Assembly (NCBI GenBank): GCA_028280345.1
Contig: JANQLY010000015.1
Coordinates: 62,001-126,000 of the forward strand
DNA length: 64,000 nt
Source of the DNA: Pseudomonadales bacterium
Lineage (GTDB): Bacteria; Pseudomonadota; Gammaproteobacteria; Pseudomonadales; UBA7239
Direction of reading: 5' to 3'
The notes under the pieces were generated by a model, which was not told the origin of the DNA, searched no databases, and saw nothing but the letters and a program-made list of their open reading frames with translations. A program made the translations under genes and the position numbers. Within the stretch, counting starts at the first letter, position 1. Each line of letters begins with the position of its first letter. Of this stretch, positions 17,213-62,412 are shown piece after piece.

Positions 17213-20200
17213 ATGGCGACGTTTCACCGAGGTGTCAAACGGGGTTTATTACTTTTTATAGGGCTTTTGGCGGTAGCTGCACAGGCTGCTGATCTGGATA
17301 AAGATACTTTACCTGATGACTGGGAAGTGGCGAATGGCCGCGACGCGAGTGTGCCTGACTATATTGTGGAACCAGGCTGGAATTCGACCTGTATCAAGCA
17401 CGATGCTGGTGTGACCTGTGTCGGTGAACTCGGGTATGCGGTGCCTGATCTGGTTAACCCGGCGCAATTGGCGGTAGGTGCAAGTCACGCCTGTGCGCTG
17501 GATCAGGGTGAAGTAATTTGCTGGGGGCCAGCGGCCCAGACTCAGGTGCCAGGTATGAATGCACCGCGGGAAATTAGCACCTTTGCCAATCACACGTGTG
17601 CGATTTACGACAACGGCTATGGCGGCGGTGTGAAGTGCTGGGGCGATTACAGCTACGGCAAGGCAACACCTCCGGCGCTCACTAATCCGCGCAATCTTAG
17701 CGTCGGCCGAGATCACAGTTGCGTTATCGACGATACGGGGCTGGTGTGTTGGGGTAGCAATGTAGAAGGGCAGTTGAGCTTGTCAGTGATTGATCCTGTG
17801 GTGGTTGAAGCAGGAGACAAACACACCTGTGCGATTTATAACGCGGATGAGGATGGCGGTCTTATTGCCTGTGCCGGGCTGAATGGTTGGTCACAAGCCT
17901 CGCCACCACCGATTAATGATGCTATTGCTCTAAGCGCCGGTATTAACCGTACCTGTGCGATGCGTAGTAATGGCGCGCTATCCTGCTGGGGTTCCAGAGG
18001 TAATGGCCAGGGTAGCCAGCCTGGCTTGTCCAGTGAGGTGACGGTGGGTTCCGGTTACCAGCACCACTGTGCACTTGATAATAGAGGTGCACAGTGCTGG
18101 GGACGCAGTTCCGAAGGTCAGTTGAACTTTGTTGGCGTAGTATTCGATGCTGATGGTGACGGTATTGAGAATGTGCTTGATAACTGTCGCTTGACCGCCA
18201 ATCCGGATCAGGTTGATGACGATTGGGATGGGGTTGGTAACAGCTGCGATACTGACAATGATAACGATGGCCTGGACGACAGTGTCGAGCAACTTGTTTA
18301 TGGCACTGACCCGTTTAATGCAGATACCGACAGTGATGGCTGGACCGATTATGATGAAGCGATAGTTTATGGCACCAACCCTCTCGTGCCGGATAGTGAT
18401 GCTGATCTTGATGGGCTGCCCGATGAATTTGATGCTGATGATGATAATGATGGCCTGAGCGATGTGGAAGAAGCCGGTCTCGGCACCAATCCACTATCAG
18501 GTGATACCGATGGTGACGGTTTTGGTGATTACGCTGAAGTAAATACCTGGGGCACTGACCCAACTGTTGCCGATAATGATAACGATGGAGATGGGCAGCC
18601 GGATGCTTTTGATACCGATGACGATAATGATGGTTTATCAGATGCTGATGAGTTGTTAAACGGATCGGATCCGTTTAATCCCGATACCGATGGTGATGGT
18701 TTTGGTGATAACGAAGAGGTTGTTACGTTTGGTACGGATCCGGCTGTTGCCGATGGTGACAACGACCTCGATGGTGAACCCGATGCCTACGATAGCGATG
18801 ATGACAATGACGGCGTATCGGATGTTGATGAAGCGGGTTATGGTAGCGATCCGTTCAGCGCGGATTCCGACGCCGATGGTATGGACGACTTGTATGAGGT
18901 AATTCACGGTCTGGACATTATTACGGTTGATGCAGGCAGTGATGCGGACGGCGATGGCATCACTAATCTTGAAGAATACACGTTAGGTTTGAGTGCTTCT
19001 GATTCTACAGATGCCCTTGGGGATATTGATGAAGATGGTTTGAGTAATGTAATGGAGTTGCGCTTGCTTGGTACAGATCCGACCGTTATGGACGGTGCTG
19101 CAGCTGGGGAGGTGATTGAGATTGCAGTTGTGGACACCGGCTGGTATGAACAGCAACCGGGAGATATTTATCATCATATAACAACCAATGAAAATATCCT
19201 GACCGGTTTCCATGGCAACAATATCCATCGCAGTTTCTTCTATTTCGAATTGCCAGCGTCTCCCGGGGCAGCGGTTGTTAATGCTGTGTTGCGGGTTGAT
19301 CGTGCCGGTAATATGAGCTCACCTGATGGTACTGAGACGTTACAGCTTCATGATGTAACAACGCCAGCTAGCGTAATAGTCGCTGGCGAGGGTGGTGCCG
19401 AAATGTTTGAGGATCTTGCCAGTGGTGTTCTCTATGCCGAGCAAGACTTCTCCTCGCACGGGGACATTGTTGATATCCCTCTCAATGCCAATGCGGTCAA
19501 TGCGATTGTAGCTGCATTCGGTTCAGAGTTTGTGATTGGTGCACATATCAGCACACTTAGCGAAGATTATCCTCAGCATGTATTTGGTGGTTCAAATGCA
19601 CTGGATTCCCTTTTAATTCTGACATTAGGAAATAACGATCAGGACGGGGATGGTATGCATACTGCCTTTGAAGCAGTGTTCGGTCTTGACGATCTGGATC
19701 CTTCCGATGCTGCCCTCGACAACGACTTTGATGGCTTAAGCAATCTGGAAGAATTCCAGAATAGCTCCAATCCGCTGTTGGCAGATTCTGATGGCGGAGG
19801 CCTTGATGATGCCATTGAGCAGTTTACTGGCACCAGCCCACTTTATGCAGGTGATGACGATACTACAGACTCCGATGCCGATGGCATGATCGATATTTGG
19901 GAGCTGTATAACTTTGCTGGCCTGGAACATGGGGCAGATGATGACTTCGATGCAGATGGTTTAAGCAATATCGATGAAATGCTGTCGCGCACTGATCCCA
20001 CGGTCGGTGATACCGATGGCGATAGCGTACTTGATGGCGATGATGTCTTCCCGATTGATCCTGCAGAAACCACAGACGCGGATATGGATGGTATCGGTGA
20101 TAACGGCGATGACGACGACGATAACGATACCGTACTTGATGGTAACGATAACTGTCAGTACACGGCTAACCCGGATCAGGCAGATACCGATGGTGATGGT

Positions 20201-23200
20201 CTTGGTGATAGCTGTGATGCAACGATTTATGGCGACGTAGATTACGACGGCGTTGATGATCTCGCCGATAACTGCCCGGGTATCAGTAACAGTGATCAGG
20301 TTGATACCGATGGTGACGGTTGGGGTGATGCCTGTGATGTGGACCAGGGTGGTGTGGAATTGCTGATGCAGCCAGGTGCAAAAGTCTCTGCCAATGGTGG
20401 TGAGGTAATCGTTAGAGTAATGGATGCCGAAGCAGGTTTTACCAGTGAGTTGTGGTTAAGTTCTCCCGAGGAGCGCTTTATTGCGACTAACCGTGATATT
20501 GGTACTGTCGTTAACCTGGGGGTTTATGAAGCAGGCACGGAACTGATTTTCCACATCTATGTACGAAATACAGAGTACACCTATTTTACGGGCCCAGCTG
20601 ATCGCAACCCGGACAATGAGCTTCATGCTGCGGTGCATGTATCGCAGTTTGGTGCTGCAACTGTTGGTTTTGAAGACCAATTTGGCGGTGGTGACCAGGA
20701 TTACAATGACAATATGTTCCGTTTTCTTGGCTTGTCTGCGTTTGAAGATAACGACAGCGATGGTATCAGCGACTTCTATGATGATGACGATGACAACGAC
20801 GGTACGCCGGATGTGAGCGATGCCTTCCCGTTTGATGCATCAGAAGATACGGATACCGATGGTGATGGCGTTGGTGATAACGCCGATGTGTTCCCGAACG
20901 ATCCGACCGAAACAGCCGACGTTGACCTTGATGGCATTGGTAACAATGCGGACTACGATGACGACAACGATAATATTCCCGATGCACAGGATCCGAACCC
21001 GCTGGTGGCCTCCGGTGATGCAGATCGTGATGCGTTACCTGATGATTGGGAGATTGCGGTAGGTCGCAACCCAGCCATCCCGGATTACCTTGTTGAAGCG
21101 GGTTATACCAATACTTGTGCAAAAGACGATAACGGCATTGTCTGTTGGGGTCTCAATGAACATGGTGAGAATCTGGTTCCAGCGATCGATTACGTGCGTG
21201 AACTGGCTATTGGTGATGATCATGTTTGTGCGCTGCACGGTGAAAACCCTGAAACTACAGAAGTCACCTGCTGGGGGCTTGCCACGGAACAAACGGCGCC
21301 TGTGGCCAGCGTGATTTCCTCGATTGATAGCTATGCAGATACAGAGCACACGTGTGCGCTGCACAGTGATGGTGTGGATAGCACAGCGGTGACCTGTTGG
21401 GGTGATGTCAGTCTGGATATTAATAACAAGCTTGCGGTACCTGCGTTAGTTGGCCCGTCCAGCATTACTGCTGGCGCTGAGCACAGCTGTGCGATTGATA
21501 GCGAAGGTGTGAAATGCTGGGGCAGCAATTCAGATGGTCAGCTCAACGTACCGTTCCTGGTTGATCCGGTTAAGGTAGAGGCCGGTGCATTCAATACTTG
21601 TGCACTACACGATGTGGATGCCGATGGTGGTCGAGTGAGCTGCTGGGGTCAAAATGCTCTCGGTCAGTCGTTGCCACCTTCTGCTTACACGAATGTTGTG
21701 GATATCAGTGCAGGCCGCAACGTGGGCTGTCTGTTACGAGATAATGGTTCGGTTTATTGCTGGGGTAGCACAGGTAATAGTCAGCGTAATGTGCCGAGCA
21801 TGAATAAGGCGGTACAAATCAGCTCCGGCTTCCAGCACCACTGTGCGCTGGATCGCAATGGTGTGAAATGCTGGGGTCGTAATACAGAAGGTCAGCTGAA
21901 TGCGCCGGCGTTCAGTATGGATCCGGATGGTGATGGTATTCAGAACTATCAGGACGGTTGTCCGCTGGTGGCGGTTGATCAGGATTACGATAACGATTGT
22001 GTACTCGATATCTATGACCCGGATGATGATAACGATGGTTTGACGGATGCCAATGAAATATTGGCAGGTACAGATCCGCTCAATCAGGATACTGATGGCG
22101 ATGGCTTTAGTGATGGCGCTGAAGTGAATACCTTCTTAACTGATCCGCTAACCATTGATGGTGATAACGACAGTGATGGTGAGCCGGATGCTTATGACAC
22201 GGATGATGATAATGACGGCTTGTCCGACACTGATGAAGCACTTTATGGATCTGATCCGTTTAATCCGGATACCGATGGTGACGGCTTTGGTGATAATGTT
22301 GAAGTTGTCACGTTTGGTACCGATCCAACTGTTGCTGATGGCGACAACGATAATGACGGTCTGCCGGATGCCTACGATCCTGATGATGATAACGATGGCC
22401 TGTCTGATGTTGACGAAGAGGCAAATGGTTCTGATCCATTTGTTGTGGATACAGACGGGGATGGCTTCAGTGATAATGCAGAAGTCGTGACCTTTGGTAC
22501 CGATCCTACTGTTGCCGACGGTGATAACGATAGTGACGGCCAACCGGATGGCTACGATACCGATGATGATAACGATGGTTTATCCGACATGGATGAGGCG
22601 GCTAACGGAACGGATCCATTTAATGTTGATACCGACGGTGATGGCTTTAGTGATTATGCTGAAGTGATAACGTTTGGTACTGATCCTTTGGTAGCTGATG
22701 GTGACAACGACGCTGATGGTCAACCGGATGCTTACGATACGGATGATGATAACGATGGCTTGTCAGATACTGATGAGGCTCTACATGGTACTGATCCGTT
22801 TAGTTCGGATACCGATGCGGATACCATGGATGATGCGTTTGAGGTCACCTATGGGCTTAATCCACTGCTCGATGACACAGAAGAAGATCTTGATCAGGAT
22901 GCGCTGACCAATATTGAGGAATTTACTCTGGGCCTTAATCCGGCGGATGCGAGTGATGCAGTTGGTGATCTGGATACTGACGGTTTGAGTAATGTAATGG
23001 AGTTGCGTTTGCTTGGCACAGATCCTCTGGTGGCTAACGGAACCCCTGCGTCCGGTGTACGTAATGTGAATATGCTCAAGCTCAGTGGCTACGTGGATAT
23101 TGCCAGGGAGCAGCAGAACCTGCAGCTTGCACTGGAATTTAATGGCCACACAGTCACAACGTTTGACGCGATTGATGGGGCCTCCCTGTCAGCGATGTTG

Positions 23201-25189
23201 GCGGATACCTCGAATGTGCTGGTTATTCCTGAACTCGAGCGCGGTAACCTTTACTCCGGACTCAGTGCGGCAGCACGTGCGGCTATTGTTGACTATGTCG
23301 AGCGTGGTGGCATGTTGCTACTGGCCGGCGATGGCTCCAATAACGATGTTGCATTACTTAATGGCCTGTTTGGCTACAATATTGCAACGGGTTATCAGAA
23401 AGTGGCCTCTTCGCTGAATAGTACACTTGCTGCAGGAACGGTATTTCAGGGCGGGCCAACCAGCCTGGGTAATACCAATGCGGTTCTTTCCAAAGCGACA
23501 AGTTCGTTACCTGCCGGTGCCCTGGGTTACTATGTGGGAGGTGGTGGCCGAACCACTGTGTTCTTTGTGCCGGAAGGCGCAGGCTATGTCGGCTTCCTCG
23601 CCTACGACTGGTATAACGCGAGTCATACCGCAGATTGGCGTGAAGTGTGGCACCGGGCGCTGAGCTACAATGCGGTGTCGGCTGACGCAGATGGTGATGG
23701 TATCCATACAGCCTATGAAACTTTCTTTGGGCTTGATGACACCAATGCAGCGGATGCAGCAGCAGATCCGGATGGTGATGGTCTGACCAACCTCGAAGAG
23801 TTCCAGAACAATACCAATCCGATTCTTGCGGACACCGATGGCGGTGGTACCAGCGACCTGTCCGAGCTGGGTATGGCAACCAATCCACTGATTGGCAGTG
23901 ATGATATCTTTGATCCGGATAGCGATGGTGATGGTGTGCCGGACAGTCTTGATGCGTTCCCGCTTGATGGCACAGAAACCAGTGATGCAGATGGTGATGG
24001 TGTTGGAGACAACGCCGATACCGATGATGACAACGATGGTATGCCGGATAGCTGGGAATCTGATAATGGCTTTAATGCATTGGATGATAGCGACGCAAGT
24101 CAGGATGCGGACGGTGATGGCTTTAGTAATCTGCAGGAATTCCTGCGCGGCAGCGATCCCCATGTAGTGAACCGCGCCAGCTATGGTCTCGACTTTGACC
24201 GGGATGGCGATGGTGACCTTGTATTCCATGAAGCGGGTAGCGGCTCGGTCTCTATCTGGACACTGGAAAATGCGCTGAAAGCTTCTGCAAGCTGGATCGC
24301 CAACTTCACTGATGTGGAACTGGCGGCACTGGCCGATGTGGATGGCGACTACGATAGCGATATTCTGTTCAATAACACAGGCAGTGGTGCGGTAACGATC
24401 TGGTATATGGAAAACGGTGCCCGCATTGATGTGAAGACAGTAGGCTATCAGGTGGGTTACACACTGCTTGCCGCCGGTGACCTCGATGCCGATGGTGACG
24501 AGGATCTTGTGTTCGGTGATGCGAGTGGCAATGTGGTGACCTGGTTGATGGAAAACGGCTTTAAGCAAACCAGCCAGTGGCTCGGTGTCTGGGGTGGTCA
24601 GAGTGTGCAAGGTCTTGCCGATGTGGATAACGATGGCGACAAGGATATTGTGACCCAGGATAGCTTCGGTAATGTCAATGTGATTGAAATTGAGAATGGC
24701 GACAAAGTTGCTGCGCGCTGGCTCGGTGTCTGGGCGGGCCGCAGCGTTGTTGGCAGCGGTGATGCCGATGGCGATGGTGACGATGATATCTTCCTCGAGA
24801 ACAGCGGTGATGTGATGGTGGTTGAAGTAGAGAATGGCCAGAAAGTCACGGGTCGCTGGCTCGGTGCCTGGGCAGGTACGCGGGTAGCTGCAGTGGGCGA
24901 TATTGATGCCGATGGTGATGCCGATCTGATTCAGGATAATCTGGATACCGGTTCTACCCAGGTGGTGCAAATGGAATCAGGCAACAAGATCCTCGCACGC
25001 TGGATTGGTATTTTCAGTGGTTACGCCGTGAAGGGAGTAGTGGATGCCGATGCCGATGGCGATATCGATATTCTGTTACAAAATGACCTTGGCAGTGTTG
25101 CCCTGGTTGAGCTTGAGAATGGCGGTAAAGTTGGCGGCGGTAAGTGGCTCGGCAACAACAGCGGTGATCTCAAGCTGTTTGATAAATAA
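17213..25189 (+). CDS. Giant secreted protein: RCC1 propellers, thrombospondin type 3 rods, DUF4114 and FG-GAP/VCBS propeller
   Basis: 2658 residues with a signal peptide (cleavage after AQA, about residue 25). In order: an RCC1-like block of seven Cys-paired repeats (~55-310), then TSP3-like Asp-rich repeats (~315-625). A beta-rich domain similar to DNRLRE follows (~630-805), then more TSP3 (~810-1040). A DUF4114-like domain (~1045-1170, [15 protein letters not shown]), short TSP3 and a second seven-repeat RCC1 block (~1285-1565) come next. TSP3 in 60-residue units (~1570-1930) precedes a class-I amidotransferase/ThuA-like domain (~1947-2155) and TSP3 (~2160-2320). The protein ends in seven FG-GAP/VCBS-like repeats (~2323-2658). 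It is an internal duplication of one scaffold. It is probably an extracellular, calcium-stabilised adhesin or structural protein. No LPXTG or PEP-CTERM sorting motif is seen. Confidence 0.88.
18392..18931 (+). repeat. Tandem 180-bp (60-aa) TSP3 repeats, first block
   Basis: Three consecutive 60-residue units follow the pattern D-x-D-N-D-x-DG-x-PDA-[YF]-[10 protein letters not shown], DxDGDGFxD, and a GTDP ending. Each unit carries several DxDxDG-type calcium loops. The third unit degenerates at its end. Confidence 0.8.
22157..22876 (+). repeat. Tandem 180-bp (60-aa) TSP3 repeats, second block
   Basis: Four 60-residue units start at residue 1649. Each begins DGDND and contains [16 protein letters not shown] and TFGTDP. 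Neighbouring units are very alike in protein and DNA, more so than those of the first block, which suggests recent expansion or conversion. The last unit degenerates. Confidence 0.85.
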
Positions 25190-49951: not shown

Positions 49952-49967
49952 TCACCCGCCAGGGTGA
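49952..49967 (+). other. Second TCACCC hairpin
   Basis: TCACCC-GCCA-GGGTGA repeats the stem of the terminator at 49889 with a different loop. It lies just before the giant gene and lacks a T run. It may be a leader hairpin or a decayed terminator copy. Confidence 0.5.
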
Positions 49968-50029
49968 TTCTTCCCAATCGGGATATGGATATCATTGTGC
50001 GCAATATTAAAACTATTGCGGTGCTGTAT

Positions 50030-53000
50030 ATGAAACTGCGTTATTGCTGCTCCTTGTTTCTGGTGTTGTTTACTCTAAATCCCTTATCAGCCTCTGCGGC
50101 GACCGGTTATTGTACGGTGCTCATTGATCAGGATACGTTTGTTAATAACGAAGTTGCAAATGTCGATACTAATTTTGCTAATGCGACGGAACTGCAAGTC
50201 AAAAGTCACTCGACGGGCCAAGGTGGAATATCCCGTAGTTTTGTCAAAGTATCTGATCTGCTGGCTGCAACCTGTTCTGAAACAGCACATCAGGAAACGT
50301 TAGGTAGCCTTGTTAATGGTTCTGCGGATATCGTATCGGCGCGGCTGCGTTTATTCGGCAACAATACACCAGGTGTGTATCCCGGTCTTAATCAAACCGA
50401 TGCTCACACCGTGCAGCGGGTAGTGGCAGCATGGGATGAAGGTACCGTCACCTGGAATGCTTCCCCGGCTGTTGATGCGACGGAAAACAGCAATGCGGGT
50501 GATCGTATCGGCTTATGGCCCGGTACCAATTACCGATCCTGGGATGTCACGAACGACGTTAAGTTGTTTGTCGATACTCCCGCCTCCAATCACGGCTGGC
50601 GTGTTAAGGCCGATGAATCTGGCACAACGGAAGACGGCGTTATTTACCTGAGTCAAACCGGTCTTGACGACAACGGCTATCAGCAGGGTAAACCCAAACT
50701 GATTATTGAATTCAATTTGCCGCAGTCATGGGTGAACAGCTGCTCGGGTACCTGGGAGCAAACACTGGCATGCCGTCAGCCGTTACAAGTGACGGATTTT
50801 GTTATTGATAACTGGACATACTGCGGCGGGGCAGAATTCAGTGACGGTGAAGTGACCGCATTACAGTTACGTTACGGTCAAAAAACCGTGATTATTCCGA
50901 AGGACTGGATGTCGTTGAATGGGGTGCGCTCTGTTGAGCATAGCCAGAAAGGGCATTTGGCGCCAAACCTGAAAGGTGTATCTGATCAGTTACTGATAAT
51001 GGAGCACACTGAAGGAGTATTGCAGGATCTGTTTTCTAACTGGTGGCGTTCTTTTCCAAACCGCCACAATATAAAGTTTTGTGGCGCGAAGGGTGGCATA
51101 GGTCTGTTTATGAATGTCGGGTTGCCTAATTCGATAGGCACGCAGGATCGCATCTGGACCTGGGTGCATGAAGTAGAGCACCAGTGGGATGGTCGATCAG
51201 GTGGTGCTTTGGCGAATGCTGATCCTGCTCACAGTTGGACGTTTGCCATCGACGATATTGTACGCCTGGAGCTGGGTAATACCGGTTATGGTACCTACCT
51301 TGATAAGGATATCTATGGTTTCCACAACTACAATCGGGCCTGGGATGCCTATATGGATCGGGACGGTGATGGTGTTAATGATCCGCACGACCTGGCCAGT
51401 GATTATACGGCTACACCGACAAACCCGAATACCCGGGACTGGTATGACTACTGGTCTGATGCAGCCCGTGCAAACTATGTTTCCGGCTCAATGAACAGTG
51501 TTGAGATTGAAGAAGAGATTCGAACGATTGGTGGCCCGTTGCGCTGGATCTATGCGGTCCACGGCAGAGATGCGTTAAAAGCGTTTTTTACCACCTTTGA
51601 TGTTTATGCTCAGGATAACAGTACCTATACACCGCCTGCCGGTGGATTTGCTAATGCCGGTGAAGAAATAAACGATCGTTATGTGCGTTTTATTGCTGAT
51701 GCGTTGCAGGTAGATGCGGCAACCTATTTTGACTATTGGAAATGGCCGGTGCATCCGGACACAAGAGCTTATACGAGCCAGTACACCGATATTGCACTGG
51801 TGAGCAACAGTACCGGCGGTGCGGCCCATCTCGATGATGATGGCGATGGCTTTAGTGAATTAGAGGGTGACTTTAACGACTCCGATGCATCGATATATCC
51901 GTATGCGCCGGAGTTGGCGGATGGCAAGGATAATAATTTCGATGGCTTGACCGATGAGCTGGCTATTTATGAGCTGAGTCGTCCAGGGTTACCAGCTGAT
52001 AAAACTTACAGTTATACCGACCTTGACTCGATGGGGCTGGGTACGATCGATTTATCAGCTGTTGGCGGGATCACCATTAAGGGCAGAGCTGATGCGTTGA
52101 CAGATAAAGAGACACTGACGTTCACGCTGTCAGAAGATGCCTCTGTATTTATGCATCTTCAGCGTTTGCAGGATCCGAATAATGAAACGAAAAAATTCAA
52201 TGGCTTTATGACAGTTGATGGGCCAACTCTTCCTTTGCCTTATATCAACAGGATGGGCTCGGGTCGTATTATGCTTCCGGCAGGTACCTATACGGTCACG
52301 ATAGAGCCGCGGGACCACTATCAGGCAAGAAATGCCGGTGACTATGTTGCTCAGTTATTTATATCCAATATTGGTTTATTGCCGCTGGACAGCACGGATT
52401 CAGTTGCTGATTTTTACTATCCGGCGTTTTATGCCTGGGGTCCTCCGTCAGCAAGGCCACAACCGGGTAACCACGGTTATACCTGTGAGGCCGGTTTTGG
52501 TGTCACGGTTGCGCAGTGTCAGTTGCTCGTTGATTTTTATGATCAGTATGGGCCGTTTGATATCTTGAATAATGGTATCCGGGAGGATTCCGGCTGGCTG
52601 GTACCGGGCTCCAGTCCCTGTGATTGGAACAGAATCATCTGTAGCCCGTCAGGGGTTATTGGTTACATAGGCGTATACCCGGAGGGGAACGATTTTATTG
52701 ATACCGATGGTGATGGTACAGCCAATTATCTTGATAATTGCCCACTGGATAACGGCAATACCTGTGATCCGGGCGCCACTGATGATGATGGCGATGGTTA
52801 CCCAAATGATTTTGAAATACTCAATGGCACTGACACACTGGATTTTTACAGTGTGCCGGCAGATTACGATGGAGATTTGATTCTTGACCCTAATGATCCG
52901 GATGATGATAACGATGGCGTTGTTGATGAACTGGATAATTGTCCTAAAGGCACGATAGGTACCGGGGCTGCACCACTGAATGCAGATGCTGACTATGACG

Positions 53001-55333
53001 GCTGTGACGATGTGACAGAAGATGTATTTGTGCAGATTATTATTGATACTGACAATGACAGATACAGCGACAGTGATGAGGTTGCCTGTGGCTATGATCC
53101 GGCTAGCAGTGGCAGCATCCCGGAAGATTTTGATTTGGATTATGTTCCAGACTGTATTGATGATGACGATGACAACGATGGTATGACGGATATCTGCGAA
53201 GTCGCAAATGGCCTGAATGCAAAATACAGTTTGGATGCGGATGTTGATATTGATGGCGACGGATTTTATAACTATGTTGAATGCCTGTCGGGTACCAACC
53301 CGAATGACATGGCTTCAAAACCAGTAGATACCTATGCCTATGTACTGGTGTTTGAAGATCCGCTAACCAATCTTTACGGTGTAAACCTGGATACCGGTGA
53401 AAAGTGGCTGATTGGCGATACGGGTATTCTTAATGAGGAATTAAAGGATTTAACCAGGAATAGCAACGGAACCCTTTATACGATCGGTGCATCGACAAAG
53501 AACATTTATACGATTGATACTCAAACCGGTCAGGCAGCCTATGTGACAACTGCGTTGACGAATAGCTTGATTGTGCGTGGATTTGAAATCGATGCTAATG
53601 ATCAGGCATGGATTTTAACTCAGAATGGAGTTTTTATTCATCAGCTCGACCTTCAAACGGGAGTAACCAATAAGTTGGCGGCGGCTCAGGTTCAGCATCC
53701 GAATTCATTAACCAGTCGATCCGGTGATAACTGGCTTTATTACCTGGGCTATGGGCTGGATAACTTTTCCCGTATGGATAAGACAACCGGTGAGGTTGAG
53801 GTGCTTAGTCAGAATCTTCCCGTTGTATTTACGCAAACCTTAACAGTGAATAGCCAGAATGTTATCTGGTATCTGGATGACTCATCCCGTGTCAGAACGC
53901 TCAATCATAGAACAGGATTGAGCAATCAAAGTGGCAACTTGGGCTTCGGTTTCAATATGCTCAGAGGCATAACGGCGGTTCTGGATAACGACGGCGATGG
54001 TAATCCTGATCAGTGTTTTGGCAGCTGTTTTGGAGGCCTTGTTGAAGATGCGGATGATGACAATGATGGTTACTCGGATGCTGATGAAATCACGAATAGC
54101 ACAGATCCGTTCAATGCGCTGGATACACCGCCGGATAATGACGGTGATTTTGACCCGGATTCCAGTGACCCGGATGATGATAACGATGGGATGCCGGATA
54201 GCTGGGAACTCACCTATAGCCCGGCATTGGACCCGTTTGTCGATGATGCGGCGCTGGATGCAGATATGGATGGTTATAACAATCTTGGTGAGTACCTGAA
54301 CAATACGGATCCGACCTTATTTAATTTTGAACCTTTGGATTTGAATGCGGATGGCGATGGCGATTTAGTATTCCAGGATAATGGTTCGGGCTCTGTTGTG
54401 GTTTGGCAGCTGGAAAATGCAGCACTGTTGAACTCTGCATATATTGCCGATATTGCGATGGGTGTTGTGGCGATCACCGATGTCGATGCTGACGCTGATG
54501 TCGATATTGTATTTCAGGATGCTGTTACTGGTGATGTCGTACTCTGGATCATGGAAAACGGCTTGCGCCAGTCGGCCACCTGGCTGGGTGTATTGAGTGA
54601 CTATCAACTGGCTGCTACCGGCGATGTGGACGGTGATGGCGATGGTGACCTGGTCTTTGACGATGGCTTGGGCAATGTACTGGTATGGGTTATGGAAGAT
54701 GGTACTAAAGAATCGTCCAACTGGTTGGGCCTATGGGCTGGCCAGTCGGTGATGGCGCTGGCTGATATTGATAGTGATGCCGATGATGACATCATTACGC
54801 AGGACGCCAGTGGTAGTGTCAATGTCATCGAAATGGAAAATGCTAACAAGGTGGAGGCGCGCTGGCTCGGAATCTGGTCCGGGCGGGTGGTTGTTGCAGC
54901 CGGTGATACAGATGCTGACGGCGATGACGATATTCTGATGGAAACGACTAGCCCGGCGGGTGATGTGATGGTTATCGAAGTAGAGAGCGGCAATAAGGTA
55001 CTGGGTCGTTGGCTGGGTATATGGACCGGCACGCAAGTGCAGGGAGTTGGTGATATTGATAACGACGGCGATGTTGATCTGGTGCAGCAGAATGCGGGCA
55101 CGGGTTCGGTACAGGTGGTAGAGCTACAGAACAACCAGAAGGTTATTGGACGCTGGCTTGGCAATTTTGCCTATGATCTTAAAGGAGTCGTCGATGCCGA
55201 TGCGGATAATGATATTGATGTTGTCTTGCAGGACGGGAGTGGCAATGTTGCGTTGATCGTTATTGAGAATGGGGCGAAGCAGGGCGGCGCGAAATGGCTT
55301 GGTGTTAGCGGTGGAGATTTGAAACTATTCTGA
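50030..55333 (+). CDS. Giant secreted protein: DNRLRE, buried HExxH region, TSP3 rods, FG-GAP/VCBS propeller
   Basis: 1767 residues from the ATG at 50030, which gives a clean signal peptide (residues 1-23, ending SASA). Upstream starts at 49964 and 49985 would bury it. In order: a DNRLRE-like domain (~25-230), then an unfamiliar region with HEVEHQWDG (H380) like a zinc peptidase. A MopE-like metal motif (~601-643) follows, in which the usual Cys are replaced by Phe (GDFNDSDAS, DNNFDG). Next come a beta domain, an LRR-cap-like segment (SPCDWNRIICS, ~820-886), and TSP3 repeats (~890-1096). A six-or-so-strand propeller-like region (~1100-1316), short TSP3 (~1318-1435) and seven FG-GAP/VCBS-like repeats (~1437-1767) complete it. 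The last module is close to that of the protein at 17213 and ends KWLGVSGGDLKLF. Confidence 0.85.
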   Translation: MKLRYCCSLFLVLFTLNPLSASAATGYCTVLIDQDTFVNNEVANVDTNFANATELQVKSHSTGQGGISRSFVKVSDLLAATCSETAHQETLGSLVNGSADIVSARLRLFGNNTPGVYPGLNQTDAHTVQRVVAAWDEGTVTWNASPAVDATENSNAGDRIGLWPGTNYRSWDVTNDVKLFVDTPASNHGWRVKADESGTTEDGVIYLSQTGLDDNGYQQGKPKLIIEFNLPQSWVNSCSGTWEQTLACRQPLQVTDFVIDNWTYCGGAEFSDGEVTALQLRYGQKTVIIPKDWMSLNGVRSVEHSQKGHLAPNLKGVSDQLLIMEHTEGVLQDLFSNWWRSFPNRHNIKFCGAKGGIGLFMNVGLPNSIGTQDRIWTWVHEVEHQWDGRSGGALANADPAHSWTFAIDDIVRLELGNTGYGTYLDKDIYGFHNYNRAWDAYMDRDGDGVNDPHDLASDYTATPTNPNTRDWYDYWSDAARANYVSGSMNSVEIEEEIRTIGGPLRWIYAVHGRDALKAFFTTFDVYAQDNSTYTPPAGGFANAGEEINDRYVRFIADALQVDAATYFDYWKWPVHPDTRAYTSQYTDIALVSNSTGGAAHLDDDGDGFSELEGDFNDSDASIYPYAPELADGKDNNFDGLTDELAIYELSRPGLPADKTYSYTDLDSMGLGTIDLSAVGGITIKGRADALTDKETLTFTLSEDASVFMHLQRLQDPNNETKKFNGFMTVDGPTLPLPYINRMGSGRIMLPAGTYTVTIEPRDHYQARNAGDYVAQLFISNIGLLPLDSTDSVADFYYPAFYAWGPPSARPQPGNHGYTCEAGFGVTVAQCQLLVDFYDQYGPFDILNNGIREDSGWLVPGSSPCDWNRIICSPSGVIGYIGVYPEGNDFIDTDGDGTANYLDNCPLDNGNTCDPGATDDDGDGYPNDFEILNGTDTLDFYSVPADYDGDLILDPNDPDDDNDGVVDELDNCPKGTIGTGAAPLNADADYDGCDDVTEDVFVQIIIDTDNDRYSDSDEVACGYDPASSGSIPEDFDLDYVPDCIDDDDDNDGMTDICEVANGLNAKYSLDADVDIDGDGFYNYVECLSGTNPNDMASKPVDTYAYVLVFEDPLTNLYGVNLDTGEKWLIGDTGILNEELKDLTRNSNGTLYTIGASTKNIYTIDTQTGQAAYVTTALTNSLIVRGFEIDANDQAWILTQNGVFIHQLDLQTGVTNKLAAAQVQHPNSLTSRSGDNWLYYLGYGLDNFSRMDKTTGEVEVLSQNLPVVFTQTLTVNSQNVIWYLDDSSRVRTLNHRTGLSNQSGNLGFGFNMLRGITAVLDNDGDGNPDQCFGSCFGGLVEDADDDNDGYSDADEITNSTDPFNALDTPPDNDGDFDPDSSDPDDDNDGMPDSWELTYSPALDPFVDDAALDADMDGYNNLGEYLNNTDPTLFNFEPLDLNADGDGDLVFQDNGSGSVVVWQLENAALLNSAYIADIAMGVVAITDVDADADVDIVFQDAVTGDVVLWIMENGLRQSATWLGVLSDYQLAATGDVDGDGDGDLVFDDGLGNVLVWVMEDGTKESSNWLGLWAGQSVMALADIDSDADDDIITQDASGSVNVIEMENANKVEARWLGIWSGRVVVAAGDTDADGDDDILMETTSPAGDVMVIEVESGNKVLGRWLGIWTGTQVQGVGDIDNDGDVDLVQQNAGTGSVQVVELQNNQKVIGRWLGNFAYDLKGVVDADADNDIDVVLQDGSGNVALIVIENGAKQGGAKWLGVSGGDLKLF

Positions 55334-58131: not shown

Positions 58132-61100
58132 ATGCGCAGCACAACTTTCACGGCTTTCTTGCTTCTGCTTTTATCCTGCTTTTTTATCGGTCCGGCCTTT
58201 GCCATAGACACCGATGGTGACGGGCTGGATGACAGTGTCGAAACCAATACCGGTGTTTATATAAGTCCGACCGATACTGGTACCGATCCGAATGATCCGG
58301 ATACGGACAATGACACGCTGCCGGACGGCTGGGAAGTGACCAATAGTGATCCCCATAACCCTCTGTATTTTCTCGGGGTGGGTAATTCTGCCAATCATAG
58401 CTGTGCGAAAGGGGATTCGGGTGTCGTATGCTGGGGTAATAATATTTCTGGTGCCACGACGGTGCCGGCGCTGGTAAACCCGGTGTCAGTTGAGACCGGG
58501 GGTACATTCTCGGCACATAGCTGTGCGCTTGATGATACCGGCGTGGTTTGCTGGGGGGGCAATGGTTACGGTCAAACGAATGTTCCAGCCTTGACCTCTC
58601 CGACGGTGATGTCGGTTGGCTTTCGTCATACCTGTGCCCAGGACGGGAATGACGCTGTGTGCTGGGGGCAGAATGTAGCGGGCGAGGGGCAAACCTATAA
58701 TCTGAAAAGTGGCATTCAGCTCAGTGCCGGTGGCAATCATAACTGTGGCCTGCGTGCATCGGGTGGCGGTATTGTGGAATGTTGGGGCAGCGATGCCAAC
58801 GGAGAGTCGACAGTGCCTTCACTCACAACACCCACCCAGGTCAGTGCTGGTAACGTTCACAGTTGTGCGCTAGATGCAAATGGCGTCTCCTGCTGGGGGA
58901 GTAATACCTTTGGTCAAACCAGTGTGCCTTCGTTAACCAATCCGGTTCAGGTAAGTGCCGGTAGCCTGCATACCTGCGCACTTGATGACACCGGTGTAGT
59001 TTGTTGGGGTAATAATAGTAATGGCCAGTCCACGCCGCCGACACTGGTTAACCCGGTGGTGGTAAATGCCGGTGCTTCTCATTCCTGTGCGCTTGATGAT
59101 ACCGGTGTGGTGTGTTGGGGTAGTGATTCCTCGGGTCAGTCTACGGTGCCGTTTACAGTGGATCCCGATGGCGATGGTATGCCGTCAAACTTCGAAGTAG
59201 CTAATGGCCTTGATCGACTGGTTGATGACAGTGCCAGTGATCTTGATAGTGATGGTTTGACTAACCTGCAGGAGTATACCCTCGGTACCGACCCGACGAT
59301 GGATGCTGACCTTGATGCCGATGGGCTCAGTGATGCAGATGAGGTCAACATTCACGGCTCTGATCCGAATGACACGGACTCTGACGATGATGGTCTGAAC
59401 GATTTTGATGAGGTAACAGTACATTTCACTGATCCGACCCTGACGGATACCGACAGCGACACAATGCCGGATTTCTATGAAGTGCAGAATGGTTTAAACC
59501 CGATTGTGGATGATGGTGGTAGTGACCTTGATAGCGACGGTTTGACCAACTTGCAGGAGTATCAGAACAATACTGATCCGGCAGTGGATGATGACAAGGA
59601 CAGTGACGGTTTATCCGATGCGGATGAAATTCTCACCTATGGCTCCGACCCGGATGATACCGATACGGATGATGATGGTTTGACAGATTATGATGAAGCG
59701 ATTACCTATCTGACTGACCCGACCTTGACGGATACCGACAGCGATACGATGCCGGATTTTTATGAAGTACAAAACGGTTTGAATCCACTGGCTGATGACA
59801 GCGGCAGCGATCTTGATTCTGATGGCCTCACCAACTTGCAGGAATACCAGTATGGTACTGACCCGGCGGTGGATGCGGATGCAGATAGTGATGGCCTAAA
59901 CGATGCCGATGAGATCAATGTGCATAATACGGATCCGTTTGATGCGGATACTGATAACGACGGGCTCAGTGATAGTGGCGAGGTTGCGGTGGGCCGTGAT
60001 CCCAATACCCCGGATTACGATGTTGGCGCGGGTTATTTCTATAGCTGTGCCCTTGATGACAATATTGGTAGTGCGCATTGCTGGGGCGATAACACCTATG
60101 GGCAAACTTCCGTACCGGCGTTAAGCAACCCGGTCCAGATCAGTACGGGTCAGTACAATGCCTGTGCGATTGATGATACCGGCGTAGTTTGCTGGGGAGA
60201 TGACTCGGTAGGGCAGCTATCGGGTATTCCGGCAATGACCAATCCGACTTCTGTTGTTGTTGGCGGCGGACATATTTGTGCCATTGATAACGGTGCGTTA
60301 AATTGTTGGGGACTCAACACCTCCGGGCAGGCAACTGTACCTGGTGGTGTGATTAACGTTACCCAGGTTTCAGTGGGCTCCGACCATACCTGCGCACTGT
60401 ACAACGGTGGTAATACCCTGTGCTGGGGTTCAAGTGGTGCCGGCAAGACCACCATTCCGTCAGTCAATGGTGTGTCATTAACAGCAACGGGCTGGAACCA
60501 TACCTGCTTTATTGATCTGACGGGTGTGGTTTGTTGGGGTAGCAATAGTTATGGTCAAATCACGGTTCCGAGTCTGACTAATCCGGTTGATCTTGCACTT
60601 GGTGCTGGTCATAGCTGTGCGATTGACGACACAGGTGTGGTTTGTTGGGGGGATAACGTGTCAGGCCAACTGAATGTACCGGCGATGGGTACACCGTTAA
60701 AAATCACCGCCTACTATGATCATACCTGTGCATTGCATAGCGACGGTATCACCTGTTGGGGCCGGGACACTTATGGTGAAAGCAGTGGCGGTAATATCGT
60801 GATCGACTCTGATCTTGATGGTATGCAAAATGCCTACGAGCTGCTTTACGGACTGAATCCATTTGATAACACTGATGCAGCGCCGGATTCTGACAGCGAT
60901 GGATTAACCAATCTCCAGGAATCTACCTATAACACCAATCCGTTCTCTGCGGATACTGACAGTGATGGTGTTGATGATATCGATGAAATTAATACCCATA
61001 GTACAGACCCGCTTGATGCTGATACCGATGGCGACACGATCACCGATGGTTTTGAAATCGACAATGGCCGAGACCCGCTGGTACAGGATTATCAAATCGG

Positions 61101-62412
61101 TTCAGGTACTGCCCATAACTGTGCACTGACCGATGCCCCGGGAGGTGTCGAGTGCTGGGGTGATGATACGTATGGTCAGTCCACGCCACCGGCACTGAGT
61201 AACCCGGTACAGCTTTCTACCGGTGGCTACCACAACTGTGTAGTCGATGATACCGGTGTGGTGTGCTGGGGCGATAATACCCATGGTCAGCTAAACGTGC
61301 CGGCGCTGGTTAATCCGGTAGCCGCTTATGCCGGTGGCTTTAACAGTTGCGCACTGCATGACAGTGGACTCGCCTGCTGGGGTGAAAATTCCTATGGCCA
61401 GAACTCGGTGCCAGGCCTGACGAATGTTCGGGAAGTTTCTGTGGGTGCTTACCATATCTGTGCGATTGATGATAATGGAGTTAGCTGCTGGGGAAATAAT
61501 ACCTGGGGACAAACCAGCGTACCTGGCGGCTTGACCAATCCGCGTTCCCTAAGTGCATCACAATACAATACCTGTGTAATTGACGGTGTTGCTGGTGAAA
61601 TATGCTGGGGCAATAACACCTACGGCCAGACTCTTGGTGCAGGCACTGCCGATGCCGCACTGGTACGTTCGGGTACCAACTTTACCTGTTCATTGGAAAA
61701 TGAAGTGATAACCTGTGTTGGGCTGGATAACTATGGACAGCTAATGGTACCCACGATTACTTCACCGTGGACGATGGATAGTGGCAGTGACCATAGCTGT
61801 GCGATTGATAATACCGGTCAGGCGATCTGCTGGGGGCGTGATCTGTACGGTGCTGATGTCGATGTGATTTTGACTCTTGATCCGGATGGTGATGGGTTAA
61901 TTACCCATACCGAAATAGGCTTGGGGACAAGCCCCGTTGATGCCGATAGTGATGATGATGGCCTTGACGATTACGATGAGGTTAATGTTCACAATACTAA
62001 CCCGCTTAATGCCGATAGTGATGGTGACAGTATTAATGACAGTGCCGAAATTGCAGCAACAACCAACCCGCTATTGCAGGATACCGATGGTGATGGTTTA
62101 ACTGACGGTATTGAAATCAATACCTTCGGTTCTGATCCGTTAAGTGCAACCAATGCAGTGCTGGATAGTGATGGTGATGGTATCAGTGATGTAAAAGAAA
62201 TCGCGATTGGAACCAATCCGAACAGCGCGGATAGTGACGGCGATGGTTTAACGGATGATGTGGAGCTGCTTACCTACTGTATTGATCCAAACAACCAGGA
62301 TACCGATGGCGATGGCACACTGGATAATCTTGATCCGGAACCGGCTCCGGAAGCCTGTACGATGCCGCTTAACGGTCAGTATAAAGGCATTGATTTTGGT
62401 GCCGGTCAATAA
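58132..62412 (+). CDS. Giant secreted protein: three seven-repeat RCC1 propellers joined by TSP3 rods
   Basis: 1426 residues. A strong AGGAGGT site and ATG at 58132 begin a signal peptide (residues 1-24, ending AFA). Three cycles each start with a conserved leader (LPDGWE, LSDSGE or ITDGFE, then PDY-like). Each then has seven Cys-paired RCC1-like repeats (~83-341, ~633-886, ~990-1243), with TSP3 Asp-rich repeats between and after. The RCC1 repeats read like SCALDDTGVVCWGNN. It has no catalytic domain and no FG-GAP module. The end (about 1400-1426) has a short tail. It is probably a secreted or surface-bound calcium-stabilised scaffold or binding protein. Confidence 0.88.
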   Translation: MRSTTFTAFLLLLLSCFFIGPAFAIDTDGDGLDDSVETNTGVYISPTDTGTDPNDPDTDNDTLPDGWEVTNSDPHNPLYFLGVGNSANHSCAKGDSGVVCWGNNISGATTVPALVNPVSVETGGTFSAHSCALDDTGVVCWGGNGYGQTNVPALTSPTVMSVGFRHTCAQDGNDAVCWGQNVAGEGQTYNLKSGIQLSAGGNHNCGLRASGGGIVECWGSDANGESTVPSLTTPTQVSAGNVHSCALDANGVSCWGSNTFGQTSVPSLTNPVQVSAGSLHTCALDDTGVVCWGNNSNGQSTPPTLVNPVVVNAGASHSCALDDTGVVCWGSDSSGQSTVPFTVDPDGDGMPSNFEVANGLDRLVDDSASDLDSDGLTNLQEYTLGTDPTMDADLDADGLSDADEVNIHGSDPNDTDSDDDGLNDFDEVTVHFTDPTLTDTDSDTMPDFYEVQNGLNPIVDDGGSDLDSDGLTNLQEYQNNTDPAVDDDKDSDGLSDADEILTYGSDPDDTDTDDDGLTDYDEAITYLTDPTLTDTDSDTMPDFYEVQNGLNPLADDSGSDLDSDGLTNLQEYQYGTDPAVDADADSDGLNDADEINVHNTDPFDADTDNDGLSDSGEVAVGRDPNTPDYDVGAGYFYSCALDDNIGSAHCWGDNTYGQTSVPALSNPVQISTGQYNACAIDDTGVVCWGDDSVGQLSGIPAMTNPTSVVVGGGHICAIDNGALNCWGLNTSGQATVPGGVINVTQVSVGSDHTCALYNGGNTLCWGSSGAGKTTIPSVNGVSLTATGWNHTCFIDLTGVVCWGSNSYGQITVPSLTNPVDLALGAGHSCAIDDTGVVCWGDNVSGQLNVPAMGTPLKITAYYDHTCALHSDGITCWGRDTYGESSGGNIVIDSDLDGMQNAYELLYGLNPFDNTDAAPDSDSDGLTNLQESTYNTNPFSADTDSDGVDDIDEINTHSTDPLDADTDGDTITDGFEIDNGRDPLVQDYQIGSGTAHNCALTDAPGGVECWGDDTYGQSTPPALSNPVQLSTGGYHNCVVDDTGVVCWGDNTHGQLNVPALVNPVAAYAGGFNSCALHDSGLACWGENSYGQNSVPGLTNVREVSVGAYHICAIDDNGVSCWGNNTWGQTSVPGGLTNPRSLSASQYNTCVIDGVAGEICWGNNTYGQTLGAGTADAALVRSGTNFTCSLENEVITCVGLDNYGQLMVPTITSPWTMDSGSDHSCAIDNTGQAICWGRDLYGADVDVILTLDPDGDGLITHTEIGLGTSPVDADSDDDGLDDYDEVNVHNTNPLNADSDGDSINDSAEIAATTNPLLQDTDGDGLTDGIEINTFGSDPLSATNAVLDSDGDGISDVKEIAIGTNPNSADSDGDGLTDDVELLTYCIDPNNQDTDGDGTLDNLDPEPAPEACTMPLNGQYKGIDFGAGQ
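59302..59990 (+). repeat. Tandem ~285-bp (95-aa) TSP3 repeats
   Basis: Copies start at 59302, 59587 and 59872. The first two are full and very similar, including the exact TDTDSDTMPDFYEVQNGLNP segment. The third is cut short where the next RCC1 leader begins. Confidence 0.8.

What the first reader, a model, noticed from the sequence alone, without database searches (positions are those of the whole stretch)
17213..25189. Internal duplication with exchange of the inserted globular domain
The two halves share leader, RCC1 block, 60-aa TSP3 units and the phrase [13 protein letters not shown], then rejoin at HTA-E--FGLDD and NLEEFQN-NP. Between these matched flanks the first half (about 630-805) holds a DNRLRE-like beta domain and the second (about 1947-2155) an amidotransferase/ThuA-like domain. 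This looks like cassette exchange on a duplicated scaffold.
Basis: seen in the sequence. Interest (0 to 1): 0.8.

Follow-up and report, generated by a model that had tools for sequence, protein, structure and literature searches.

The report
Swapped domains in duplicated surface protein
A giant, probably secreted bacterial protein consists of two copies of the same repeat scaffold, and at the same joint in each copy a completely different globular domain is plugged in; a sister protein in the same genome carries three such joints with still other domains, so the joint behaves like a socket whose contents are replaced during evolution.

Summary
Observation confirmed. The 2,658-aa ORF at 17213-25189 contains two diverged copies of one scaffold. 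Flanks match (RCC1 46%, TSP3 array 62%, left joint 74%, right joint 67%) while the two inserts match no better than shuffled sequence (z = 0). The two RCC1 blocks are sisters among 27 in the genome (96/89), so the duplication is real, but old: synonymous sites are saturated. Insert B folds like a class I glutamine-amidotransferase/ThuA domain but has no cysteine. Insert A is a different exported domain; the DNRLRE label is only a sub-threshold hint.

The same joint occurs three times in a 6,030-aa protein of the same genome, holding a PPC-like domain, a B-type domain and an RCC1 propeller. The five joints form one clade (100/98), yet the two B-bearing joints are not sisters (AU p = 0.014 and 0.007). 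The fewest cargo changes are three, economically read as B ancestral and replaced three times. Other bacteria plug PPC, ThuA-like, RCC1, LamG and other domains into the same type of joint. "Cassette exchange" is supported as an evolutionary history. No recombination mechanism is shown. Function (surface/adhesion scaffold) is inferred.

The parts
17213..17287 (+). Sec-type signal peptide by eye ([25 protein letters not shown]), residues 1-25; not duplicated
   Evidence: sequence
17348..18145 (+). RCC1 block 1 (residues 46-311)
   Evidence: PF13540 E 4e-23; sister of RCC1 block 2, 96/89
18146..18967 (+). TSP3 repeat array 1, 180-nt / 60-aa period (residues 312-585)
   Evidence: repeat families D1, D2; PF18884 on whole protein
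18968..19081 (+). left joint 1, ends ..[18 protein letters not shown] (residues 586-623)
   Evidence: 74% identical to left joint 2
19082..19636 (+). cargo A (residues 624-808), exported domain, fold unresolved, weak DNRLRE hint
   Evidence: no homology to cargo B; relatives in L005, L006, L145; NF033679 E 0.0065
19637..19816 (+). right joint 1, [19 protein letters not shown]...[11 protein letters not shown] (residues 809-868)
   Evidence: 67% identical to right joint 2
20345..20737 (+). DUF4114 region (about residues 1045-1175), present in half 1 only
   Evidence: PF13448 E 2e-7
21068..21916 (+). RCC1 block 2 (residues 1286-1568)
   Evidence: PF13540 E 4.3e-38
21917..22912 (+). TSP3 repeat array 2 (residues 1569-1900)
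22913..23026 (+). left joint 2, ends ..[18 protein letters not shown] (residues 1901-1938)
23027..23683 (+). cargo B (residues 1939-2157), class I GATase/ThuA-like fold, no cysteine
   Evidence: AF2 pLDDT 70, Foldseek PDB 1i1q_B E 7e-6, 1t0b ThuA-like E 3e-4; Cys count 0; 34% identical to the domain in the 6030-aa paralogue
23684..23863 (+). right joint 2, [19 protein letters not shown]...[11 protein letters not shown] (residues 2158-2217)
24164..25186 (+). C-terminal FG-GAP/VCBS-type block (residues 2318-2658), half 2 only
   Evidence: PF13517 E 7e-17; 60% identical to C-terminus of the 6030-aa paralogue

Best explanation
The gene encodes a giant, probably secreted calcium-binding repeat protein that arose in part by an old internal duplication of a scaffold [leader unit - RCC1 propeller - TSP3 array - left joint | cargo | right joint]. 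The joint between two TSP3-type units is a structurally tolerant socket: a compact domain of about 150-270 aa can sit between '..GTDP' and 'D.DGDG...E..GLD' without disturbing the stalk. After duplication the cargo at one copy was replaced, leaving an amidotransferase-fold non-enzymatic domain (B) in one copy and an unrelated exported domain (A) in the other. Most likely B was the older cargo and A replaced it. Likely function, inferred: the TSP3 arrays form Ca2+-stiffened stalks that display propellers and cargo as binding or assembly modules at the cell surface or outside, and changing cargo changes what the protein binds. Shown: duplication, shared joints, unrelated cargo, recurrence of the joint with other cargo, flank/cargo discordance. 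Inferred: direction of replacement, homologous recombination in the repeats as the means, secretion, calcium binding, adhesion.
For: Segment similarities and zero similarity of inserts. RCC1 blocks sister at 96/89 among 27 blocks of the genome. Same joint three times in a 6030-aa protein of the same genome with a PPC-like domain (PF04151 E 0.0064, below its cut-off, but aligned at 33-38% identity with clear PPC domains at the same joint in L040/L064), a B-type domain and an RCC1 propeller. Five joints one clade, 100/98, with no empty joint inside it. B-bearing joints P_s2 and G_s2 held together as one clade are rejected: AU p 0.0145 with 23 rows, 0.0071 with long branches removed. Fewest cargo changes three. 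B-type cargo at a TSP3 joint also in a same-family genome (L004) and in a planctomycete (L041, PF06283 E 2e-4; A2 profile E 2.5e-7). Other cargo at the same type of joint: PPC, RCC1, Laminin_G_3, DUF4394-type propeller.
Against: Flank trees rest on about 120 columns of low-complexity, D/G-rich repeats. Sisterhood of P_s1 and P_s2 is starred in two trees (98/83, 96/85) but falls to 85/87 in the trimmed set. Old homogenisation of flanks within one gene could mimic the discordance. Synonymous sites are saturated (4-fold identity 0.31-0.42 against 0.32 expected), so event order cannot be dated. The codon-identity spike at the left joint is the best window but scan p is 0.09-0.31, so there is no recombination scar. 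No orthologue with alternative cargo was available.
Confidence: 0.66

Rival explanations
1. Independent insertion: the joints were empty when the scaffold duplicated, and A and B (and PPC, B, RCC1 in the paralogue) were inserted separately into the same tolerant linker.
For: Empty joints of this type are common in TSP3 arrays elsewhere (26 empty of 52 in the tree; 13 own and 53 external matches with gap 0-8).
Against: No empty joint lies inside the clade of five. It needs five insertions, two of them of B, against one insertion plus three replacements.
Confidence: 0.2
2. Patchwork assembly plus concerted evolution: TSP3 units recombine freely within and between genes, so the similar flanks result from homogenisation and the two halves are not one duplication event.
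For: More than 130 similar TSP3 units in about 40 ORFs of the genome. The longest exact repeat in the gene (26 nt) abuts the left joint.
Against: RCC1 blocks, which are not TSP3, are also sisters. Synonymous saturation argues against recent conversion. The tract at the joint is not significant.
Confidence: 0.12
3. A and B are strongly diverged copies of one ancestral insert.
For: Same position and similar length.
Against: Alignment no better than shuffle; profile comparison probability 0.1%; B is alpha/beta, while A's own relatives (L005, L145) match A only.
Confidence: 0.02

Closest known systems
Bacterial TSP3-repeat proteins (Pfam PF18884 TSP3_bac, PF02412 TSP_3), including M. xanthus MtsC/CglD-type proteins by NCBIfam
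   Same: DxDxDG calcium-loop arrays in long exported proteins; partial matches to MtsC and CglD models
   Different: Scores far below the equivalog cut-offs (82 against 350, 66 against 400 bits); RCC1 propellers and a recurrent cargo joint are added
Saccharophagus degradans megaproteins (PMC2386152)
   Same: Very long, acidic, calcium-motif, secreted multidomain proteins suggested to bind surfaces
   Different: No duplicated scaffold with swapped cargo was reported in the passages read
Fibrillar adhesins: stalk domains plus interchangeable adhesive domains (PMC8286594)
   Same: Repeated stalk with different presented domains; that paper asks whether adhesive domains work on any stalk
   Different: TSP3 and RCC1 are not mentioned in that text; here cargo is inserted inside the stalk at one fixed joint
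Domain exchange in CdiA/TpsA effectors (PMC5371414, PMC3848433; titles and abstracts only)
   Same: Constant scaffold with a polymorphic domain exchanged between matched flanks
   Different: There the exchanged part is a receptor-binding or 3'-end region; here it is internal, between copies in one gene, with no sign of toxin activity
ThuA / class I glutamine amidotransferase fold (PF06283, PDB 1t0b, 1i1q)
   Same: Cargo B fold
   Different: No cysteine, so no amidotransferase nucleophile; no Pfam family hit

Membership tests
Class I glutamine amidotransferase / ThuA-like (cargo B) | flavodoxin-like alpha/beta fold of the superfamily | tested here: met
   Foldseek against PDB: 40 matches at E <= 0.001 including TrpG and ThuA-like proteins; model pLDDT only 70
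Class I glutamine amidotransferase / ThuA-like (cargo B) | catalytic cysteine nucleophile (amidotransferases) | tested here: not met
   no Cys in cargo B or in its paralogue in the 6030-aa protein
Class I glutamine amidotransferase / ThuA-like (cargo B) | Pfam ThuA / GATase profile match | tested here: not met
   no such family for cargo B nor in NCBIfam; the planctomycete relative L041 reaches PF06283 E 2e-4, 22 bits, below its 33.4 cut-off
DNRLRE domain (cargo A) | NCBIfam NF033679 score above cut-off | tested here: not met
   16.5 bits against 34; no match to a putative DNRLRE region of L132 recognised by eye
DNRLRE domain (cargo A) | beta-sandwich fold | tested here: inconclusive
   AF2 model failed, pLDDT 30
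Bacterial TSP3-repeat protein | multiple TSP3_bac repeats | tested here: met
   PF18884 E 4.4e-55, 17 stretches
Bacterial TSP3-repeat protein | calcium binding | not testable with these tools
   sequence loops only
Internal duplication | the two copies are each other's closest relatives | tested here: met
   RCC1 blocks 96/89; joints 98/83 and 96/85, but 85/87 in the trimmed set
Fibrillar adhesin | adhesive activity / surface exposure | not testable with these tools
   signal peptide by eye only

The most novel reading that the evidence does not exclude
The TSP3 '..GTDP | D.DGDG..' joint is a general evolutionary socket in prokaryotes: a fixed insertion point at which whole domains (PPC, ThuA-like, RCC1, LamG, DUF4394-type propellers and unnamed ones) are repeatedly replaced, possibly by homologous recombination anchored in the flanking repeats, giving bacteria a repertoire-swapping system for giant surface proteins.
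Probability: 0.3. Interest if true: 0.7.

Novelty: new variant of a known kind. Interest (0 to 1): 0.5.

Why it matters
Domain shuffling is usually inferred from whole architectures. Here one gene plus one paralogue gives five homologous joints with four unrelated contents, so flank history and cargo history can be compared directly. If general, the joint predicts where uncharacterised binding domains sit in large bacterial surface proteins and offers a natural graft site for testing cargo function.

Tried and rejected
Structure of cargo A: AF2 failed with two sequences (pLDDT 30), so no fold search was made. Recent gene conversion at the left joint: the 26-nt exact and 42/45-nt near-exact tract (from 19034 against 22979) is the best in the gene, but the scan test gives p 0.09-0.31: rejected as evidence. 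Foreign origin of inserts by composition: cargo A GC 0.476, cargo B 0.546, both within the range of the gene's other segments (0.474-0.553). Orthologue comparison: only three other genomes in the family, none with the full gene among the matches. Class-wide searches: few relatives of B (3 of 369 genomes besides own) and A (1 of 369). Literature: no paper on TSP3 joints as cargo sockets in six open-access searches; weak evidence of absence. Assembly chimera: not testable without reads, but the copies are too diverged at DNA level (56-73%) to be collapsed or mis-joined easily.

Full report
What was checked. The ORF at 17213-25189 (+) encodes 2658 aa. Pfam finds TSP3_bac (E 4.4e-55), RCC1_2 (1.6e-50), TSP_3, a DUF4114 and a C-terminal FG-GAP block. 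Tandem units are spaced by 180 nt. The two halves align over 1052 columns at 42%. By segment, RCC1 46%, TSP3 array 62%, left joint 74%, right joint 67%, all 28-79 standard deviations above shuffles, while the inserts (624-808 and 1939-2157) sit exactly at the shuffle mean. Profile-profile comparison of the inserts finds nothing.

Is it a duplication? In a tree of 27 RCC1 blocks of the same genome the two blocks of this gene are sisters, 96/89. The two joints are sisters in joint trees at 98/83 and 96/85, and at 85/87 when long branches are dropped. Synonymous sites are saturated, so the duplication is old and no recent homogenisation is visible.

What are the inserts? B is an alpha/beta domain with the class I amidotransferase/ThuA fold (model pLDDT 70; Foldseek against PDB TrpG E 7e-6, ThuA-like E 3e-4, GH42-type glycosidase chains and the IFT52 N-terminal domain also listed). 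It has no cysteine, so an amidotransferase activity is very unlikely; it resembles non-catalytic uses of this fold. A has no Pfam family, a sub-threshold DNRLRE hint, no match to a putative DNRLRE region of the genome and no usable model. Its relatives look like exported proteins, one fused to TSP3 repeats (L005) and one ending in a PEP-CTERM-like tail by eye (L006).

Is there exchange? The same genome encodes a 6030-aa paralogue (contig C2, L007/L008) with three joints of the same type. Between the matched flanks lie a PPC-like domain, a B-type domain (34% identical to B) and an RCC1 propeller. All five joints form one clade, 100/98, without any empty joint inside. The cargo does not follow the flanks: the two B-bearing joints are not sisters, and forcing them together is rejected (AU p 0.0145; 0.0071 with long branches removed). 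The fewest changes of cargo on the tree are three. With B in the outermost joint, the simplest reading is B as ancestral cargo, replaced by PPC, RCC1 and A. Changes counted on a tree cannot by themselves tell gain from loss, so the direction is inferred.

How general is it? A census of 80 loci from other genomes plus the own genome shows the same '..G[TS][DN]P | cargo | D.DGDGMPD.WE..GLDP' joint filled with PPC (L040, L064), RCC1 (L065), Laminin_G_3 (L084), a DUF4394-type propeller (L040 second joint), unnamed 145-160-aa domains with a shared FE...VWID pattern by eye (L043, L083, L106) and a ThuA-like domain in a planctomycete (L041). A same-family genome has B at such a joint at the start of a TSP3 protein (L004). 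Empty joints are also common. PPC-bearing joints do not form one clade across genomes either (AU p 0.0007), which partly reflects lineage.

Mechanism. Best reading: TSP3 units fold independently around calcium and the short linker between two units tolerates a domain whose ends can be accommodated there; recombination among the many similar repeats (136 matches in about 40 ORFs of the genome) would let flanks serve as homology while cargo changes. The structural and recombination parts are inference. The one possible scar, a near-identical 45-nt stretch abutting the cargo on the left, is not statistically significant.

Verdict. It is a clear variant of known modular surface-protein evolution rather than a new kind of system.

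Noticed in passing
window 49964-55333 and 58132-62412: Two further TSP3-repeat giants (1789 and 1426 aa); the second has three RCC1 blocks. The genome has over 130 related TSP3 units in about 40 ORFs, including frames of 17132, 6030, 4025 and 3594 aa.
   Followed up: partly
window 24164-25186: C-terminal FG-GAP/VCBS-type block with 'MENG.K...RWLGVWAG' repeats is 60% identical to the end of the 6030-aa paralogue, and similar wording recurs in other giants of this genome (L119, L126, L130): a shared C-terminal module.
   Followed up: partly
L041 3682 onward, 757-aa ORF (Planctomycetota): ThuA-like domain at the same TSP3 joint, with a second weak ThuA-like match near residues 82-216.
   Followed up: partly
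L043, 1815-aa ORF (Ketobacter sp. MAG): Three successive joints carry similar-looking 149-151 aa cargo with no Pfam family above cut-off: same socket, apparently duplicated together with its cargo, the opposite of the window gene.
   Followed up: no
L124, 4025-aa ORF of the same genome: Combines RHS/YD-like text (by eye), TSP3 units and an RCC1 block in one protein.
   Followed up: no
window 20345-20737: DUF4114 domain between the two halves, present once only.
   Followed up: no
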